Positions 30,341 through 49,807 of a DNA stretch of 64,000 nt are shown here, in pieces. The notes below the pieces were generated by a model. That model did not search any database. It was not told where the DNA came from and was given only the letters and a program-made list of their open reading frames with translations. How positions within the stretch are numbered: the stretch's first letter is position 1; each line of letters starts with the position of its first letter. A program made the position numbers and the translations under genes. This stretch comes from Leptolyngbya sp. SIO1E4 (GTDB taxonomy: Bacteria > Cyanobacteriota > Cyanobacteriia > Phormidesmidales > Phormidesmidaceae): NCBI GenBank assembly GCA_010672825.2, contig JAAHFU020000003.1, positions 558,001-622,000 of the forward strand. The letters run 5' to 3'.

Positions 30341-32344
30341 ATGTCTGCATCTTCTGCACGTTCCCTAGAGGAGGCCATTGACCGTCAGCCCCCCATTGCG
30401 ACCCCAGAGACCCCCATCAAAACGGCCCTGCTTCAAATGCAAACTGCTGCCAGCAGCTACATTTTGGTAGCCAAAGCTGCCAACAGGTTCGTCAGTCTGG
30501 TTACCGAGCAAAATTTGTTGCGGACGCTTATCACCCATCGCCACGCCTCGGATGTTCCCTTGGCGGCGGTTATTTCTCCTCAGGTTGCAGCGGCTCACAT
30601 CAATCAAATCTCTGATCTCCTGGCGGCCAGAGACTGGCTGCAGCAGCACAAGATCCACCATTTGCCTCTGATTGACGACCACCACAGTATTATCGGCACC
30701 CTCACCCATGAGACCCTCGTCCGTTTTCTCAACCCGGTCGATTTACTCCGGCTACAGCGAGTAGAGGACGTCATGACCTCCCAGGTGATTTGCGCATCCC
30801 CCAAGACGGCGGCCTTGGATCTCAGTAAGCTGCTCATTCGCCATCAGGTCAGCTGCATCGTGATTGGCGAGACAACAGCCCCAGAGTGTTTTCGCCCCCT
30901 GGGTGTCGTTACCGAGCAAGATATCATTCACTTGTGGTGCCATGAAAAGACCCTTGAGCGCTGTGCTCAAGACATCATGACTCAGCCTCCACAGTGCATC
31001 TTGCCCACAGCACCGCTTTGGCAGGCCCACCAGCAAATGACCACCCATCACAGGCGACACCTGGTGGTTATCAATTCAGCAGGCATCTTAATGGGGATCG
31101 TGACCCAAACCCATCTGTTACAGAAGGTAGACCCCGCTGAAGCCGAGCTGACTTTAGACGTTTTAGACCACATCATTCACAAGCGCACTACCACCCTCAA
31201 TCAAGCCAACCAAAAACTACAGCGCAAAATTCAAGAGCGAAAGCGGGCCAAGGAAGCCTTACAGCACCAAATTGCTCGAGAACGCTTGGTGAGCCGCATC
31301 ACGCAACACATTCGTCAATCCTTTGATTTAGAGACTATTTTGGCCACCACCGTGGCTGAAGTCAGTGAGTTCGTAAAGGCCGACAGAACGCTGATCTACC
31401 GAGTTCCCCATGGCATCCATACAGCAGGAAACGTCATGGCTGAAGAGGTCGCGAATGGCTGCGATCGCATTCAGGGAAACGCTGGGCTAGAAGCCATCCT
31501 ATCCCAGCTTGATACCCGCTTTTATGCCAGCGGTCGGGTGCATTCAGTCCCGGATCTGCAAGCTGTGGATCGATCGTCTCGGAAAGCCCGATTTCTGCGC
31601 TATCTAGGAATTCAGGCTACGTTATTTGCCCCTATTCTTGTGAAGGATACGCTTTGGGGCCTGCTGATATTAAACCAACATGCTGCCCCCCGTCGCTGGG
31701 AAAAGTTAGAGATCAATCTGCTAGAGCAACTCGCCTCCCAGGTTGGGCTAGCCATTCAGCAAGCGACTCTCTATGCCCAGTTAGCGTTTGCTAATCAACA
31801 ACTACAAGAACAGGCCAACGTTGACGGGCTGACCCAGATAGCCAATCGGCGTCGTTTTGATGACTGCTTACAGCAAGAATGGCGACGCTTGGCGCGCGAG
31901 CAGCAGCCCTTATCGCTCATTTTGTGCGATGTCGATTATTTCAAACGCTACAACGACACGTACGGTCATCAGGCCGGAGACGGGTGTCTTAAAGCGGTGG
32001 CCCAAGCCTTAGGGCAAGCCATCCGGCGACCTGCAGATGTAGTCGCCCGATACGGGGGAGAAGAGTTCGCCATCATCCTTCCCAACACGCCCTTGGCAGG
32101 AGTCTGCCATGTGGCAGAACAGGCCCGTCTCAAAGTTGAGGCTTTACAGATGCCTCACAGCAATTCTCAAGTCAGTGATTGGGTGACCCTAAGTCTCGGG
32201 GTTGCCAGCTATGTCCCACACTGCCAAGATTCACCCGAAAGCCTGATCAAAGCTGCAGATAGCGCCCTTTACCAGGCTAAAGCTAGCGGGCGTAATTGCT
32301 GGTCTTCTAGTTCAGCAACCGCTGACTCTGCCGTCAATGTATAA
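30341..32344 (+). CDS. diguanylate cyclase with four CBS domains and a GAF domain
   Basis: Makes cyclic di-GMP. Order: four CBS domains in two pairs (about 14-65, 73-130, 143-200, 211-265), a coiled linker (280-310), a GAF domain (about 320-478) and a GGDEF domain with the active signature GGEEF at 572-576. An inhibitory I-site RPAD lies five residues upstream, so product feedback is likely. The GAF lacks a Cys-His bilin site. CBS pairs usually bind adenine nucleotides, suggesting an energy-state input (inference). It is followed immediately by tRNA-Gln on the other strand. Confidence 0.92.
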
Positions 32345-41411: not shown

Positions 41412-44400
41412 TTAGGCCAGAGAATCCACGTTTGGGTGAGTAGGAACCTCAAGAATGAAGGTTGTCCCCTGGGTTGGAGTCGAGAGGCATTTGAGGTGAC
41501 CGTGATGCTTTTCAGTCACAATTTGATAGCTAATAGATAATCCTAATCCCGTACCTTTTCCAGGTTCTTTCGTGGTGAAGAAGGGATCAAACAGCTTACT
41601 TTTGATGGCCTCAGGAATCCCAGGGCCGTTGTCGACAATGTAGATTCGAACCCAATTCTGGCCGACGGTTTCAGTGCGAATTTGAATGCAAGGGGTACGC
41701 GGGTTAACGAAATCGCTTGCCTGCGGTTGAAGGGCATCGATCGCATTACTCAAAATGTTCATAAACACCTGATTGAGCTGAGCCGGGTAACATTCAATCA
41801 GCGGTAAATCACCATACTGCTTGACCAGTTCAATGGCTGGGCCATCATCACGCCCCTTGAATCGATGCTGCAAAATCAAGATGGTGCTATCGATGCCTTC
41901 ATGGATATCGACCGCTTTCATCTCCGCCTGATCAAGGCGAGAGAAGTTTCGTAAAGACAGCACTATCTGACGGATACGCTTAGTTCCTAAGGTCATAGAG
42001 GCCAAGGTTCTAGGCAGATCATCCATGAGAAAATCTAGATCAATCTCTTCGATATAGTCTGCGATCGCTGGGCTCGGATGGGGCGATGCTGCCTGATACT
42101 GCTGTAGCAGGTTGAGTAAATCCTCCGCATAGCGCTGGACATGGTTTAAGTTGCCTGCAATAAAGTTGATCGGATTATTGATTTCATGGGCAACCCCAGC
42201 GACAAGTTGCCCCAGCCCCACCATCTTCTCACTTTGGATCAAATGCGCCTGAGACTGCCGAATCTTCTTCAACGCCCGAGTGAGTTCCATCTTTTGGGAC
42301 TGGGTTTTCTCTAGCAATTCTGCCTGTTGCAGAGCTACCCCCAACTGTGCGCCGATCTGAGCCAGCAGGTTAATGTCTTCCTCGGGCCAAATGCGCTGAA
42401 TACCTTGATAAGCCATCAGCAGCCCCCATAGCTCTTCTCCCTGCAAAATCGGCACAAATACTTCGTGGCGGGGATGCTGACCAGGCTTCATAATCGGCGA
42501 GGTCAGGTTTACGGTTGGGGAATCTATGGATGGGGGAAAGGGTTGACAGCCATCCACGCTAGAGTCGGCGACAAATTCTCCTGTCCAATCTGAATGGAAT
42601 CGATAGATGGCAACCCGCTCAACTCCCAAGAGTTGTCTGACTTCCTGGGTGGTGGTCTGAAAGATGGTTTGAATGTCTAGCGAGCGACGGATTTTGTCTA
42701 TTGTGTTGGCCAGCGATCGCTGCCGTTCACTGGCTTTAGTTAACTGTGCTGACTGCTGCTCCAGGCAATTCAGGTATTCCGCCTGCTGCAGGGCAACCCC
42801 TAGCTGAGCCGCAATCTGGGCCAGCATATAGGATTCATCGGTACGCCACTGACGAGGACCATCGTTTTGATAGGTCGCGAGTAACCCCCAAAGCGCTTCC
42901 TTCTGGAAGATTGGAGCAATCAAAAAAGCTCGAGCCTGCATGGCTTCCAGCATCTCTATATGGCAGCCAGCATAGCCTGCGTCATAAATATCAGAAACCG
43001 CACAGGGAGCCAGGCTGTGCTGATAGCGATATCCCTGGGTTTCCAGGCAGGTATCTGTTAGCTGGATTTGGCTAGCCATTAAGGATATCCAGTTGGCCGC
43101 GACGGTTTCTGCAACGAAGTCACCACTCCAGTCTGGGTTGAAGCGATAGATGACGGTGCGATGGCTGCCGAACAGCGTGTTGACCTCATCGGTTGCCGTC
43201 TGAAAGATGGTAGTAACCTCCAAGGTCTGGCGAATTTTGTCCACCGTCTCAGTCAACGCTTTGTGGTGCTCTGCCGAGCGCTGCTGTTCTAAGGCTTCTG
43301 TTAGCTGAGCTGAGTGCTGCTGCACCTGCTGAATGTAATCATCTTGCTGGAGAGCGATGCTCAACTGCTCACCAATCTGGCGGACAAACCCAATCTCAGA
43401 AGCTTGCCAAGTTCGCGGGGCGCTGCATTGATGGATACATAGCAGCCCCCAGAGAGCGTCCCCCTTGAGCAGCGGAACGACCAAGTTGGCTCGAACTTGG
43501 AGCGATCGCATCAGTGCCAAATAACAAGGGGGGTAGTCCCCTGCTTCACAATCAGCTACAGCGGTTACATGACCGGCTCTGTACCGTTCACCGTAGCGTT
43601 CATGAAAACACTGCTCTTCAATCGGTTTGCCTAATGCCGAGGCCACCCCCTGGGTCACATCTTCCGCAACCCATTCCCCCATACCCAATTCGTCCGGGGA
43701 AAACTGAAAAATCCCGACTCGATCTGCCTGCAGCAGCTGGCGCAGTTCCATCGCGGTCGTCTGAAACGTTGTGTCCAGATCGAGGGACGTTCGGATACGG
43801 GAAATGACAGCTGTCAGAGTTCGTTGCTGGTCTGCTTGGGTACGCGCTTGAGCCAGCAGGTCGGCATGGTGCAGGGCAACACTCAAGTGCTCGGCAATTT
43901 GTCTGACAAATTCAATATCGGCGGGTTTCCAATGACGCGGTTGGTGACACTGATGAATGCACAGCAACCCCCACAGGTCTTGCCCTTTCAGCAGCGGAGC
44001 CACAATATTGGCCCGAACCTGCAGCGATGCCATCAAATCTACATGGCAAGGATAGAAATCGTCACTCTGGAAGTCAGAAACAGCGTTGATGTGCCCAGTT
44101 TTGTAGAGCACCGCAAAGCGATCGCCAAAGCACGGATCTTCAATCCGTCGCCCAAGGGCAGGCATGACCCCAGCAACAACATCTTCTGCCACCAATTCCC
44201 CTGCCCAACGCTGATCAGGGAAGAAGCGAAAGACCCCAACCCGATCAGCCTTGAGCAGTTGCCGCACCTCTGTAGCCGTTGTCTGAAAAATAGTCTCTAG
44301 ATCCAGAGAGGCTCGAATGTGAGCAATCACCTGAGACAAGGCAGCTTGCTGGGAAGCGGTATCTGAGACGGCACCCCGAGCCGACGTCAGCAAAGGCGAA

Positions 44401-44435
44401 TCGTTGACTGTAAGCTGCTTGGGACGATAAACCAT
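41412..44435 (-). CDS. four-GAF sensor histidine kinase, candidate cyanobacteriochrome
   Basis: A soluble 1007-residue kinase. Four GAF domains (about 40-195, 212-368, 400-556, 582-708) precede a HisKA domain (His750 in VAGVAHEINNPINF) and HATPase motifs (NQVFMNILSNAIDAL, VDNGPGIP, GKGTGLGLSISYQ). GAF1 has Cys130-His131 in YPCHVDL and GAF3 has Cys491-His492 in AGCHIEML. Both are followed by the Q(V/A)RA(N/F) and WGLL blocks typical of bilin-binding cyanobacteriochrome GAFs. GAF2 has Cys304-Tyr305 and GAF4 lacks the site. It may sense light with two chromophores; this is inference from motifs. No regulator is adjacent. Confidence 0.85.
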   Translation of the reverse strand: MVYRPKQLTVNDSPLLTSARGAVSDTASQQAALSQVIAHIRASLDLETIFQTTATEVRQLLKADRVGVFRFFPDQRWAGELVAEDVVAGVMPALGRRIEDPCFGDRFAVLYKTGHINAVSDFQSDDFYPCHVDLMASLQVRANIVAPLLKGQDLWGLLCIHQCHQPRHWKPADIEFVRQIAEHLSVALHHADLLAQARTQADQQRTLTAVISRIRTSLDLDTTFQTTAMELRQLLQADRVGIFQFSPDELGMGEWVAEDVTQGVASALGKPIEEQCFHERYGERYRAGHVTAVADCEAGDYPPCYLALMRSLQVRANLVVPLLKGDALWGLLCIHQCSAPRTWQASEIGFVRQIGEQLSIALQQDDYIQQVQQHSAQLTEALEQQRSAEHHKALTETVDKIRQTLEVTTIFQTATDEVNTLFGSHRTVIYRFNPDWSGDFVAETVAANWISLMASQIQLTDTCLETQGYRYQHSLAPCAVSDIYDAGYAGCHIEMLEAMQARAFLIAPIFQKEALWGLLATYQNDGPRQWRTDESYMLAQIAAQLGVALQQAEYLNCLEQQSAQLTKASERQRSLANTIDKIRRSLDIQTIFQTTTQEVRQLLGVERVAIYRFHSDWTGEFVADSSVDGCQPFPPSIDSPTVNLTSPIMKPGQHPRHEVFVPILQGEELWGLLMAYQGIQRIWPEEDINLLAQIGAQLGVALQQAELLEKTQSQKMELTRALKKIRQSQAHLIQSEKMVGLGQLVAGVAHEINNPINFIAGNLNHVQRYAEDLLNLLQQYQAASPHPSPAIADYIEEIDLDFLMDDLPRTLASMTLGTKRIRQIVLSLRNFSRLDQAEMKAVDIHEGIDSTILILQHRFKGRDDGPAIELVKQYGDLPLIECYPAQLNQVFMNILSNAIDALQPQASDFVNPRTPCIQIRTETVGQNWVRIYIVDNGPGIPEAIKSKLFDPFFTTKEPGKGTGLGLSISYQIVTEKHHGHLKCLSTPTQGTTFILEVPTHPNVDSLA

Positions 44436-46373: not shown

Positions 46374-47684
46374 CTACCGAACTCTCGATTTACGCAGCGG
46401 CAGCTGAATTTGAAACTGGGTGCCTTTGCCGACTGCACTCTTGGCCGTAATCTGACCATCGTGGGCGTGTACAATTTGCTGAGCAATGGATAGCCCTAAC
46501 CCAAACCCACCTTTACGGGGCGATCTCGCCACATCTACACGATAAAATCGCTCAAAAATATGGGGCAAATCAGTCTCTGGAATACCCATACCGTTGTCTT
46601 CAATTTGAATCAGCGCACAGTGAGATTGCGTAAAAAACCGGAGCCAAACCGTTCCACTCTCCGAGGTGTATTTGAAGGCATTCTCCAAAAGGTTGGTAAT
46701 AGCCCGCTGCAAAAGCTGTGGATCAGCTTTGAGCATAACCGGTTGTGAGGGCACCTCACTGATAAACGTTCGGTTTCGTTGGGAGGCCTGAGTCCGATAA
46801 TACTCAACCAGGGGATTCAGAAGCTCTTGTGCGTTCACCCGATGATTGAGCGCAGCCCCAGCCAGAGGTCCCTCATGTCGTGCCAGAAATAAGAGATTGT
46901 CAATCAGCTCCCCCATGGACTTAGCTGCTTTCTCAATTTCTTCGACACAGTCCTGCTGGGCAGCACTTTCTCGGATGCTGGGAATGAGGGCCACCTGAGC
47001 ATTGCTCAAAATCGCTGCCAGGGGGGTTCGTAATTCATGGGAAGCATCTGCTGTGAACCGTTGTAACCGCTCGTAAGACTGCCGGATGGGTTGCATTGCC
47101 ATGCCCCCTAGCACCCATCCGGTCAGGCCAATGACGCCCAATGTCAGAGGCACGCAAAGGGTCAATACCACCAGTGCCTGATCGAGATCGGTCTGCAATG
47201 GCACTAGGAGCGTTGCCGATTGCAGATACCCAACTAGCTGATCGTTGTGCTTCACAGGCAGAGTCAACTGGCGGAGCGATCGCTGAACTGCACTGCCCTC
47301 CTCAGTCATGTCCATAATTTGAACAGTTTGAAACCCAGTGATTTGAGTTGAAATCTGCTGATGGGTGGGCGTGAGCCCGGCAAACTGAATCAACTTGCCA
47401 TCAACGTCGTACCACCGGACGTAAACCAATTCATTCTGGGGTTCTGGGGCATTTTCTCCCACGAGTGGCGTGCCGTTTTCGAGGGCTAGCTGCCAACGCC
47501 CTTGCATTAGCTGATAGTAGACCTGGTTGTCAACTTTCTTAGTTTTTGAGTAGAGGGCATCATCAAAAGCTTGGAGCTGGTCTTCAGCTTCAAGGTAATA
47601 AACCGCCCCGGTAAAGGCAATTAAAATACTGCCCATTGAAAGGGCAAACCAATAGGCGAGATTCAGGCGGCTGCGGCTAAACAT
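46374..47684 (-). CDS. rppB: sensor histidine kinase RppB (NrsS-like)
   Basis: A 436-residue membrane kinase: membrane helix (8-30), periplasmic domain (about 30-180), second helix (about 185-208), HisKA (SHELRTPLAAILSNAQV) and HATPase (NLLENAFKYT, IEDNGMGIP, GGFGLGLSIAQQIV). It matches the RppB/NrsS kinases of cyanobacteria. In Synechocystis that pair responds to nickel (NrsS) and to photosynthetic redox state (RppB). It lies 18 bp after its regulator gene in one operon. A metal input here is inference. Confidence 0.85.
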   Translation of the reverse strand: MFSRSRLNLAYWFALSMGSILIAFTGAVYYLEAEDQLQAFDDALYSKTKKVDNQVYYQLMQGRWQLALENGTPLVGENAPEPQNELVYVRWYDVDGKLIQFAGLTPTHQQISTQITGFQTVQIMDMTEEGSAVQRSLRQLTLPVKHNDQLVGYLQSATLLVPLQTDLDQALVVLTLCVPLTLGVIGLTGWVLGGMAMQPIRQSYERLQRFTADASHELRTPLAAILSNAQVALIPSIRESAAQQDCVEEIEKAAKSMGELIDNLLFLARHEGPLAGAALNHRVNAQELLNPLVEYYRTQASQRNRTFISEVPSQPVMLKADPQLLQRAITNLLENAFKYTSESGTVWLRFFTQSHCALIQIEDNGMGIPETDLPHIFERFYRVDVARSPRKGGFGLGLSIAQQIVHAHDGQITAKSAVGKGTQFQIQLPLRKSRVR

Positions 47685-47702
47685 CGCTAAACATACGAGT
47701 CG

Positions 47703-48386
47703 CTAGGGTAATGAGTCCGGAACTTTGAGACGATATCCCATGCCATAAACCGTCTCCAACCAGTTTTTAGCACCCAGTTCATCTAATCGCTGCCGTATAC
47801 GCCAAATTAGAGTGGTCACAGCATTACTTTCTGGTTCAGTGCCCCACTCCCAAAGGGTCTGCTCAATGCGATCGCGCCGAATAATCTGCCCCGATCGCCG
47901 CATAAAATACTCCATCAGATGAAATTCTCGGCTGGAGAGGCGAACTTGAACCTGGTGTCGCTCTAGGGTGAGGGTTGAAACGCATAGATACAGGTCTCCT
48001 AGGTTAATACGATCACCATGCCACTGGGGCGATCTCCGACCCAAAGCTCGAATGCGCGCCAGCAGTTCCGGAATATCAACCGGCTTGACCAGGTAGTCAT
48101 CTGCCCCAGAATCTAAGCCCAATACTTTATCGGCTGTAGTATCTTTGGCCGTCAACATTAGCACAGGCGCGATTTTGCCTAAGGTGCGATAGTGCTGACA
48201 CAAAGACACCCCACTTGTTTTTGGCAACATCCAATCTAGAATCAGCAAATCATAGTCTTTACTGCCCATCAACCATTGGGCTTCTTCTGCGTCTTCAATT
48301 CCATCAACCAAATGACCCGATTCAGACAGGGCAATCCGCAACGGCTTTAGCTGTGCAGGGTCATCTTCAACCAGCAGGATGATCAT
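47703..48386 (-). CDS. rppA: OmpR-family response regulator RppA (NrsR-like)
   Basis: A 227-residue regulator with a canonical receiver (LLVEDD, Asp in LILDWMLPKTSG, Thr in MLTAKD, Lys in DDYLVKPVD). A winged-helix DNA-binding domain follows (LSSREFHLMEYFMRRSGQII, then ETVYGMGYRLKVP). I start at ATG 48386; a TTG two codons upstream is less likely. EWGTEPESNAVT is a hallmark of the RppA/NrsR group. It is first in the operon with rppB. Targets could include the nearby efflux genes, but no site has been identified. Confidence 0.87.
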   Translation of the reverse strand: MIILLVEDDPAQLKPLRIALSESGHLVDGIEDAEEAQWLMGSKDYDLLILDWMLPKTSGVSLCQHYRTLGKIAPVLMLTAKDTTADKVLGLDSGADDYLVKPVDIPELLARIRALGRRSPQWHGDRINLGDLYLCVSTLTLERHQVQVRLSSREFHLMEYFMRRSGQIIRRDRIEQTLWEWGTEPESNAVTTLIWRIRQRLDELGAKNWLETVYGMGYRLKVPDSLP

Positions 48387-48527
48387 CGGCAATCCACCAG
48401 GTCACATCAATGAAGGCCATTCATCGTTAGTTTGACGGGTAAATATCACAGAAATATGATGCGTCAAAATATTGAGTATGCTCAGGTAAAACACTTGCCC
48501 TGTGGCAAACTTGGGGTCTTTTAAAAA

Positions 48528-49105: not shown

Positions 49106-49807
49106 TTATCGAACCAGGGCAGGTTGCTTTGTGAAGGTTTCTCGCAACACATAACCCACCCCTCGAATCGTATGAATTAAGCGACTTTCACGGTTGGCTT
49201 CTAGCTTTACTCGTAGATAGCGAATATAGACATGGAGGACATTAGATTCTCCGATAAAATCATAGCCCCAAACATTTTCTATCAGGAGATCGCGAGATAA
49301 TACCTGACGCGGATGAGAGATGAGATACACCAGCAACTCAAATTCTTTAGGCGTGAGTTCGATAAGCCGATTCCCGCGATAAACCTCCCGCGTCTGTAAA
49401 TCAAGTTTCAAATCTCTGAAAACGAGCGCTTCTGGGTTATCTCGATGCCAGCGACGGAGGTGTAATCGCACGCGGGCTACCAACTCTTCCACACTGATAG
49501 GACGAGTTACATAATCATCTGCGCCCGAATCCAAGGCGATCGCGCAGTGGCTACCCTGGATATGATCTAGCAAAATAATCGGGATTTCCTGTTGGGTAGA
49601 GCGCAATCGTCGACAGATTTCAAGACCTGACAACATCGGTAAAGAAAAGTCCAAAATAACCAAATCAGGCTGCAATTCACGAATCGCAATTAGTCCTGAG
49701 GCACCATCCTTTTTCACAGTAAATTGATATCCCTCATAGCGCAGTTCAGTTTCAATCAGCGGCACTAAGGCGGCATCATTTGAGACGAGCAAAATGTGAA
49801 TTGACAT
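49106..49807 (-). CDS. OmpR-family response regulator with atypical receiver
   Basis: A 233-residue protein with receiver plus winged helix (LIELTPKEFELLVYLISHPR, then TIRGVGYVLRE). The phospho-acceptor Asp is present (LVILDFSLPMLSG), but the acidic pocket reads SNDAA, the conserved switch Thr is replaced (ILLDHIQG) and the catalytic Lys is Arg (DDYVTRPIS). Phosphorylation control is therefore doubtful, as reported for the atypical cyanobacterial regulator NblR. AAGGA precedes the ATG. It is last after the adaptor, RND pump and DoxX genes on the same strand and may regulate them. Confidence 0.85.
   Translation of the reverse strand: MSIHILLVSNDAALVPLIETELRYEGYQFTVKKDGASGLIAIRELQPDLVILDFSLPMLSGLEICRRLRSTQQEIPIILLDHIQGSHCAIALDSGADDYVTRPISVEELVARVRLHLRRWHRDNPEALVFRDLKLDLQTREVYRGNRLIELTPKEFELLVYLISHPRQVLSRDLLIENVWGYDFIGESNVLHVYIRYLRVKLEANRESRLIHTIRGVGYVLRETFTKQPALVR

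What the first reader, a model, noticed from the sequence alone, without database searches (positions are those of the whole stretch)
41412..44435. Candidate multi-chromophore cyanobacteriochrome kinase
Two of four tandem GAF domains keep the Cys-His bilin attachment motif (Cys130-His131, Cys491-His492) with the Q-x-RA and WGLL context of cyanobacteriochromes. A third has Cys-Tyr and the fourth has lost the site. The alternating intact/degenerate set suggests duplicated domains with divided roles. The PCB-binding idea is inferred from motifs only.
Basis: partly seen in the sequence, partly recalled or inferred. Interest (0 to 1): 0.6.

Follow-up and report, generated by a model that had tools for sequence, protein, structure and literature searches.

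The report
Three-site dual-cysteine cyanobacteriochrome kinase
This cyanobacterial gene encodes a light-sensing kinase that probably carries up to three bilin pigments, each in a pocket with two cysteines that should tune it to blue-side light; it is a further member of a known photoreceptor family, with one unusual pigment pocket.

Summary
The ORF is real (41412-44435, minus strand, 1007 aa: four GAF domains plus HisKA/HATPase_c). The cyanobacteriochrome (CBCR) reading holds, but the 'alternating intact/degenerate' picture does not. So three of four GAFs keep both cysteines of dual-Cys CBCRs. GAF1's IEDPCF is identical to TePixJ. Cys-Tyr is a recurrent state, not decay: 58 of 143 dual-Cys relatives have it. 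GAF1 and GAF2 are sister duplicates of DXCF type. GAF3 belongs with the red/green (XRG) lineage yet carries the DXC cysteine, as only two orthologues among 101 XRG-side GAFs do. GAF4 has not merely lost a site: its chromophore lobe is deleted throughout the family and the rest is strongly conserved. PcyA, the enzyme making phycocyanobilin, is in the genome. Best explanation: a soluble multi-chromophore CBCR histidine kinase with blue-side dark states, a bilin-free GAF4 coupling to the kinase, and an unlinked response regulator. Chromophore binding and colours remain inferred. New member of a known kind.

The parts
41412..44435 (-). whole gene: 1007-aa GAF-GAF-GAF-GAF-HisKA-HATPase_c kinase, no receiver domain found
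43821..44357 (-). GAF1 (aa 27-205), DXCF-type dual-Cys CBCR domain; Cys102 (DPCF), Cys130-His131
43296..43835 (-). GAF2 (aa 201-380), DXCF-lineage; Glu274-Gln-Cys276-Phe and Cys304-Tyr305; Asp-to-Glu at the pyrrole-binding position is unique among 145 dual-Cys GAFs compared
42738..43274 (-). GAF3 (aa 388-566), XRG-lineage CBCR domain with a cysteine at the DXC position; Asp461-Thr-Cys463-Leu, Cys491-His492
42276..42731 (-). GAF4 (aa 569-720), XRG-like GAF without the chromophore lobe, conserved (PRHEVFVPI, LWGLLMAYQ), presumed bilin-free
44127..44138 (-). GAF1 second-Cys motif DPCF (aa 100-103)
   Evidence: same as TePixJ IEDPCF
44037..44051 (-). GAF1 canonical attachment site, starts PCH (aa 129-133)
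43605..43616 (-). GAF2 second-Cys motif EQCF (aa 274-277)
43515..43529 (-). GAF2 canonical attachment site, starts PCY (aa 303-307)
43044..43055 (-). GAF3 second-Cys motif DTCL (aa 461-464)
42954..42968 (-). GAF3 canonical attachment site, starts GCH (aa 490-494)
42171..42188 (-). H-box HEINNP with the presumed phospho-acceptor His750
41439..41786 (-). HATPase_c (aa 884-999) with DNGPGIP and GTGLGLS boxes

Best explanation
A soluble cyanobacteriochrome histidine kinase with three bilin-binding GAF domains in series. GAF1, GAF2 and GAF3 each take phycocyanobilin (made by PcyA) on the canonical Cys (130, 304, 491). The second Cys (102, 276, 463) can add to C10 of the bilin and/or promote isomerisation to phycoviolobilin, which gives blue-side dark states. 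Light flips the C15=C16 bond and breaks the second bond, and the change passes along the helices that join the GAFs into the lobe-less GAF4. GAF4 is taken to act as a bilin-free coupler that sets autophosphorylation at His750. The phosphate then goes to an unlinked response regulator. Shown here: architecture, motifs, lineage of each GAF, conservation of the cysteine pairs, presence of PcyA. Inferred from characterised relatives: bilin attachment, colours, light control of the kinase and the role of GAF4. GAF2 is the least certain site because of its unique Asp-to-Glu and its Tyr after the Cys.
For: PDB matches to bilin-bound CBCRs: PPHK GAF2 (6oap), AnPixJg2, NpR6012g4, TePixJ. AlphaFold2 models resemble the same structures: 6ob8 (TMt 0.60, rmsd 1.5) for GAF1-2 and 3w2z (TMt 0.81) for GAF3. 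Both cysteines sit 28 residues apart in all three GAFs, as in TePixJ. In DXCF-type relatives both cysteines are kept (143) or both lost (27) far more often than one alone (14). GAF3 groups with four XRG references (FastTree 0.995; SH-aLRT 99 with the Cys column removed). Cys463 is kept in both nearest orthologues, whose GAF3-4 is 62-65% identical. PcyA passes its curated cut-off. H-box and ATPase boxes are intact.
Against: No spectroscopy. GAF2 has Glu where 140 of 145 dual-Cys GAFs have Asp, and GAF1 and GAF2 both have His where most have Arg or Lys. Lab variants of insert-Cys CBCRs without the insert and with Tyr-to-Cys at the place of Cys463 bound PCB but photoconverted poorly (PMC5240096). 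Related kinases in one genus of the family have lost nearly all the cysteines, so the architecture can persist without bilin sites. The model of GAF3-4 is only moderate (pLDDT 75.5). HisKA falls below Pfam's cut-off.
Confidence: 0.8

Rival explanations
1. Only GAF1 and GAF3 bind bilin; GAF2 is decaying and GAF4 is dead.
For: GAF2 has a unique Glu at the conserved Asp, His for Arg, and Tyr after the Cys; its path to its nearest orthologue is longer than that of GAF1.
Against: GAF2 keeps both cysteines at the right spacing. Cys-Tyr occurs in 58 of 143 dual-Cys relatives, with at least 12 His/Tyr changes on the tree. Asp-to-Glu variants of two CBCRs still bound PCB and were less impaired than Ala variants (PMC5240096). 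A Tyr at this place stacks on the bilin in miRFP670nano (PMC6336887).
Confidence: 0.25
2. The protein is on its way to a light-independent GAF kinase (redox or small-ligand sensing), as its Cys-less relatives may be.
For: Relatives in Leptolyngbya PCC 7375 and Adonisia keep the ORF and architecture but lack nearly all bilin cysteines.
Against: Those relatives fall outside the clade of the query and its two nearest orthologues (support 1.0). In the query and those orthologues all six cysteines are kept.
Confidence: 0.07
3. GAF3 binds PCB only through Cys491 and works as a single-Cys (red/green-like) sensor; Cys463 is incidental. This concerns GAF3 only and can hold together with the best explanation for GAF1 and GAF2.
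For: XRG placement; the equivalent engineered Cys made for inefficient photoconversion (PMC5240096).
Against: Cys463 is conserved in both nearest orthologues. XRG GAFs that re-gained a DXCF Cys are reported to isomerise PCB and ligate C10 (cited in PMC11284453). The Trp typical of red/green CBCRs is absent, as in nearly all its relatives.
Confidence: 0.3

Closest known systems
TePixJ GAF (DXCF CBCR, PDB 3vv4)
   Same: IEDPCF motif and Cys-His 28 residues later, as in GAF1
   Different: from a chemotaxis-type protein, not a kinase; a distant place in the tree
PPHK dual-sensor histidine kinase GAF2 (PDB 6oap/6ob8)
   Same: best match of GAF1 and GAF2 by sequence; close fold match; a sensor histidine kinase
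   Different: DQYF, no second Cys
AnPixJg2 and NpR6012g4 (XRG red/green CBCRs)
   Same: closest characterised references to GAF3, and best matches to what is left of GAF4
   Different: GAF3 has LTDTCL for WEDTYL/WEDTHL, i.e. a second Cys and no Trp
Insert-Cys CBCRs (Mbr3854g4, Mbl3738g2, NpR1597g2)
   Same: the corresponding GAF in many relatives of this kinase has a Cys-bearing insert before DTYL
   Different: the query has no insert; its second Cys is at the DXC position, like the lab variant lacking the insert with Y741C (PMC5240096)
Multi-GAF CBCR-type kinases of Nostoc, Calothrix, Okeania, Tychonema and others
   Same: serial DXCF-type and XRG-type GAFs, a lobe-less GAF and a homologous kinase
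   Different: different number and order of GAFs; mostly DTYL/DTHL in the XRG-type GAF

Membership tests
Cyanobacteriochrome (general) | GAF domains homologous to bilin-bound CBCR GAFs | tested here: met
Cyanobacteriochrome (general) | canonical Cys in the chromophore lobe | tested here: met
   GAF1, GAF2, GAF3 yes; GAF4 no
Cyanobacteriochrome (general) | covalent bilin and photoconversion by the isolated GAF | not testable with these tools
   needs expression and spectroscopy
DXCF CBCR subfamily (GAF1) | Asp-Xaa-Cys-Phe motif with second Cys | tested here: met
   DPCF
DXCF CBCR subfamily (GAF2) | Asp-Xaa-Cys-Phe motif with second Cys | tested here: inconclusive
   EQCF: Cys and Phe kept, Asp replaced by Glu
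DXCF CBCR subfamily (GAF1, GAF2) | falls with DXCF-type GAFs rather than XRG | tested here: met
   outside the XRG split (0.995; 99)
DXCF CBCR subfamily (GAF1, GAF2) | reversible C10 ligation, PCB-to-PVB isomerisation | not testable with these tools
   needs spectroscopy
XRG CBCR subfamily (GAF3) | groups with XRG references | tested here: met
   whether nested or sister to the rest is open
XRG CBCR subfamily, red/green type (GAF3) | WXDXXL motif with conserved Trp and no second Cys | tested here: not met
   LTDTCL; Trp absent, Cys463 present. GAF3 is therefore filed as an atypical XRG-lineage GAF, not as a red/green CBCR
Insert-Cys CBCR (GAF3) | Cys in a loop insert before the DXXL motif | tested here: not met
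   no insert in the query
Histidine kinase | H-box and HATPase_c boxes | tested here: met
   HisKA itself below Pfam's cut-off
Two-component pair | cognate response regulator encoded next to the kinase in relatives | tested here: not met
   no conserved neighbour in 81 loci

The most novel reading that the evidence does not exclude
GAF3 is an early-branching XRG-lineage GAF that kept the DXC cysteine, a living intermediate between DXCF and red/green cyanobacteriochromes, inside a kinase that reads three blue-side channels. The data do not reject GAF3 as sister to all other XRG GAFs (p-AU 0.51).
Probability: 0.2. Interest if true: 0.5.

Novelty: new member of a known kind. Interest (0 to 1): 0.33.

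Why it matters
It shows that the 'Cys-His' rule of thumb undercounts bilin sites and that a GAF called degenerate can be a conserved part. GAF3 resembles a lab construct (no insert loop, Cys at the DXC position), so it offers a direct test of whether evolution tuned that arrangement into an efficient photocycle. Tandem dual-Cys GAFs in one kinase also let one ask how several light channels are combined.

Tried and rejected
Conserved gene neighbours as a clue to the partner: none; the only cluster shared by all 81 loci was the kinase itself. Switch from insert-Cys to DXC-Cys in GAF3: FastTree placed GAF3 near insert-Cys GAFs, but with support 0.38 for the 16-member clade and 0.82 for 18, and IQ-TREE did not resolve it, so not claimed. 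Re-gain versus retention of Cys463: the AU test cannot tell. Loss of the WXDXXL Trp as special to GAF3: rejected, since Trp is missing from nearly all family members; 5 of 103 matched GAFs have it, three of them references. Using miRFP670nano as proof of natural Cys-Tyr CBCRs: rejected, because H87Y is an engineered change; it shows only that Tyr there does not prevent attachment. Literature searches for Cys-Tyr and H322Y gave nothing useful.

Full report
Observation. The frame at 41412-44435 lies on the minus strand and encodes 1007 aa. Pfam gives four GAF stretches, HATPase_c and a sub-threshold HisKA. Each of GAF1, GAF2 and GAF3 also has a second cysteine exactly 28 residues upstream: Cys102 in DPCF, Cys276 in EQCF, Cys463 in DTCL. 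GAF1's IEDPCF is identical to that of TePixJ, whose Cys-His follows at the same distance.

Lineage of each GAF. Against the PDB, GAF1 and GAF2 match PPHK GAF2 (6oap) best (E 3e-39 and 1e-40), and GAF3 matches AnPixJg2 (E 4e-48) far better than TePixJ (E 2e-17). In a tree of 299 GAFs with seven solved references, GAF3 lies with the four XRG references in a split of 101 GAFs (0.995) and GAF1 and GAF2 lie outside it. With the second-Cys column removed and a mixture model, the XRG side including GAF3 is again one side of a branch (SH-aLRT 99). Of the 101, only GAF3 and its two nearest orthologues have Cys at the DXC position. Whether they kept or re-gained it is open: GAF3 as sister to all other XRG GAFs is not rejected (p-AU 0.51). 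GAF1 and GAF2 are sister duplicates that probably arose before the split from the nearest genus (clade of six, 0.994).

Cysteine pairs are conserved as pairs. Among complete GAFs with Phe after the second-Cys position, both cysteines are present in 143, both absent in 27, and only one in 14. The canonical Cys is followed by Tyr instead of His in 58 of the 143, with at least 12 changes between His and Tyr on the tree (one search counts 145 such GAFs because the references and a slightly different set were used). So GAF2's Cys-Tyr is a common state of apparently intact sites. These sequences are related, so the counts are not independent. An engineered His-to-Tyr at this place in miRFP670nano stacks on a covalently bound bilin (PMC6336887). 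GAF2 does have one unusual change: Glu274 replaces an Asp kept in 140 of 145 dual-Cys GAFs. In two insert-Cys CBCRs, Asp-to-Glu variants still bound PCB and lost less photoconversion than Ala variants (PMC5240096).

GAF4. About 26 residues that hold the chromophore lobe in other GAFs are missing. A like gap is found in nearly all relatives, from Nostoc, Calothrix, Okeania, Tychonema, Symploca and Leptolyngbya, while the flanking PR-x-E-x-FVPI and LWGLL-x-AYQ stretches are nearly invariant. In the model the lobe is replaced by a low-confidence loop (pLDDT under 50 at model residues 244-270). GAF4 is therefore a conserved part without a bilin pocket, probably a coupler to the kinase (inference).

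Structure. The GAF1-2 model (pLDDT 87.5) and the GAF3-4 model (75.5) resemble CBCR and phytochrome structures; best local matches are 6ob8 and 3w2z. These models hold no ligand, so they support the fold, not binding.

Chromophore supply and context. The genome encodes PcyA over its curated cut-off, and the search for the bilin reductase family found no other member. No neighbour is conserved across 81 loci, so the partner response regulator is probably unlinked. The nearest named relative is a cyanobacterial MAG, Co-bin13 (64% identity).

Mechanism. Dual-Cys CBCRs of DXCF type use the second Cys to isomerise PCB to PVB and to add reversibly to C10 (PMC11284453). XRG GAFs that have a DXCF Cys are reported to do the same (same paper, citing Rockwell 2017). 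By analogy GAF1 should be a blue-absorbing dark state with a green-side photoproduct; the beta-2 and helix Phe residues linked to further blue tuning are Leu in GAF1 (their role is from PMC5240096, and general knowledge of the field). GAF3 lacks the insert loop and has DTCL, close to a lab variant of Mbr3854g4 (insert deleted, Y741C); that variant bound PCB and disturbed conjugation but photoconverted poorly. GAF3 may have evolved around this limit, which is testable.

Related kinases without sites. In one genus of the same family (Leptolyngbya PCC 7375, Adonisia, LEGE 11479), related kinases have lost nearly all bilin cysteines, while another genome of that genus keeps most of them. They form a separate clade from the query. 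This shows the architecture can outlive its pigments and is the main caution against reading function from architecture alone.

Verdict. An authentic multi-site CBCR-type histidine kinase by sequence, a new member of a known kind, with an atypical GAF3.

Noticed in passing
L024-L028 (Leptolyngbya PCC 7375 / Adonisia group) against L032, L052: Within one genus, related multi-GAF kinases range from most bilin cysteines intact (L032, L052) to nearly all lost (L024-L028), with open reading frames kept: a natural series of site loss.
   Followed up: partly
L053 and L055 (uncultured Pseudanabaenaceae): Relatives of the kinase that have also lost most bilin cysteines, possibly independently.
   Followed up: no
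L036, L040, L042, L043, L048, L059, L065, L076, L093, L102, L106, L114: The XRG-type GAF before the lobe-less GAF carries a Cys-bearing insert (e.g. NVSECS...DTYL), mostly together with Cys-Tyr: uncharacterised insert-Cys type CBCRs.
   Followed up: partly
window 30341-32344 (+): A second GAF protein, with CBS-like repeats and a GGDEF-like C-terminus (judged by eye); its GAF matches this kinase weakly and lacks a bilin Cys at the usual place.
   Followed up: no
window 46374-48392 (-): A histidine kinase and OmpR-type response regulator pair close to the kinase, on the same strand, with a further OmpR-type regulator at 49106-49807 (judged by eye); not conserved next to relatives of the kinase.
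   Followed up: partly
own genome, loci L011, L012, L017, L018: Further multi-GAF proteins, some with DXCF or Cys-His motifs (e.g. DNCF with ECH in L018, DVCF with DCH in L017): this genome has several CBCR-like sensors.
   Followed up: partly
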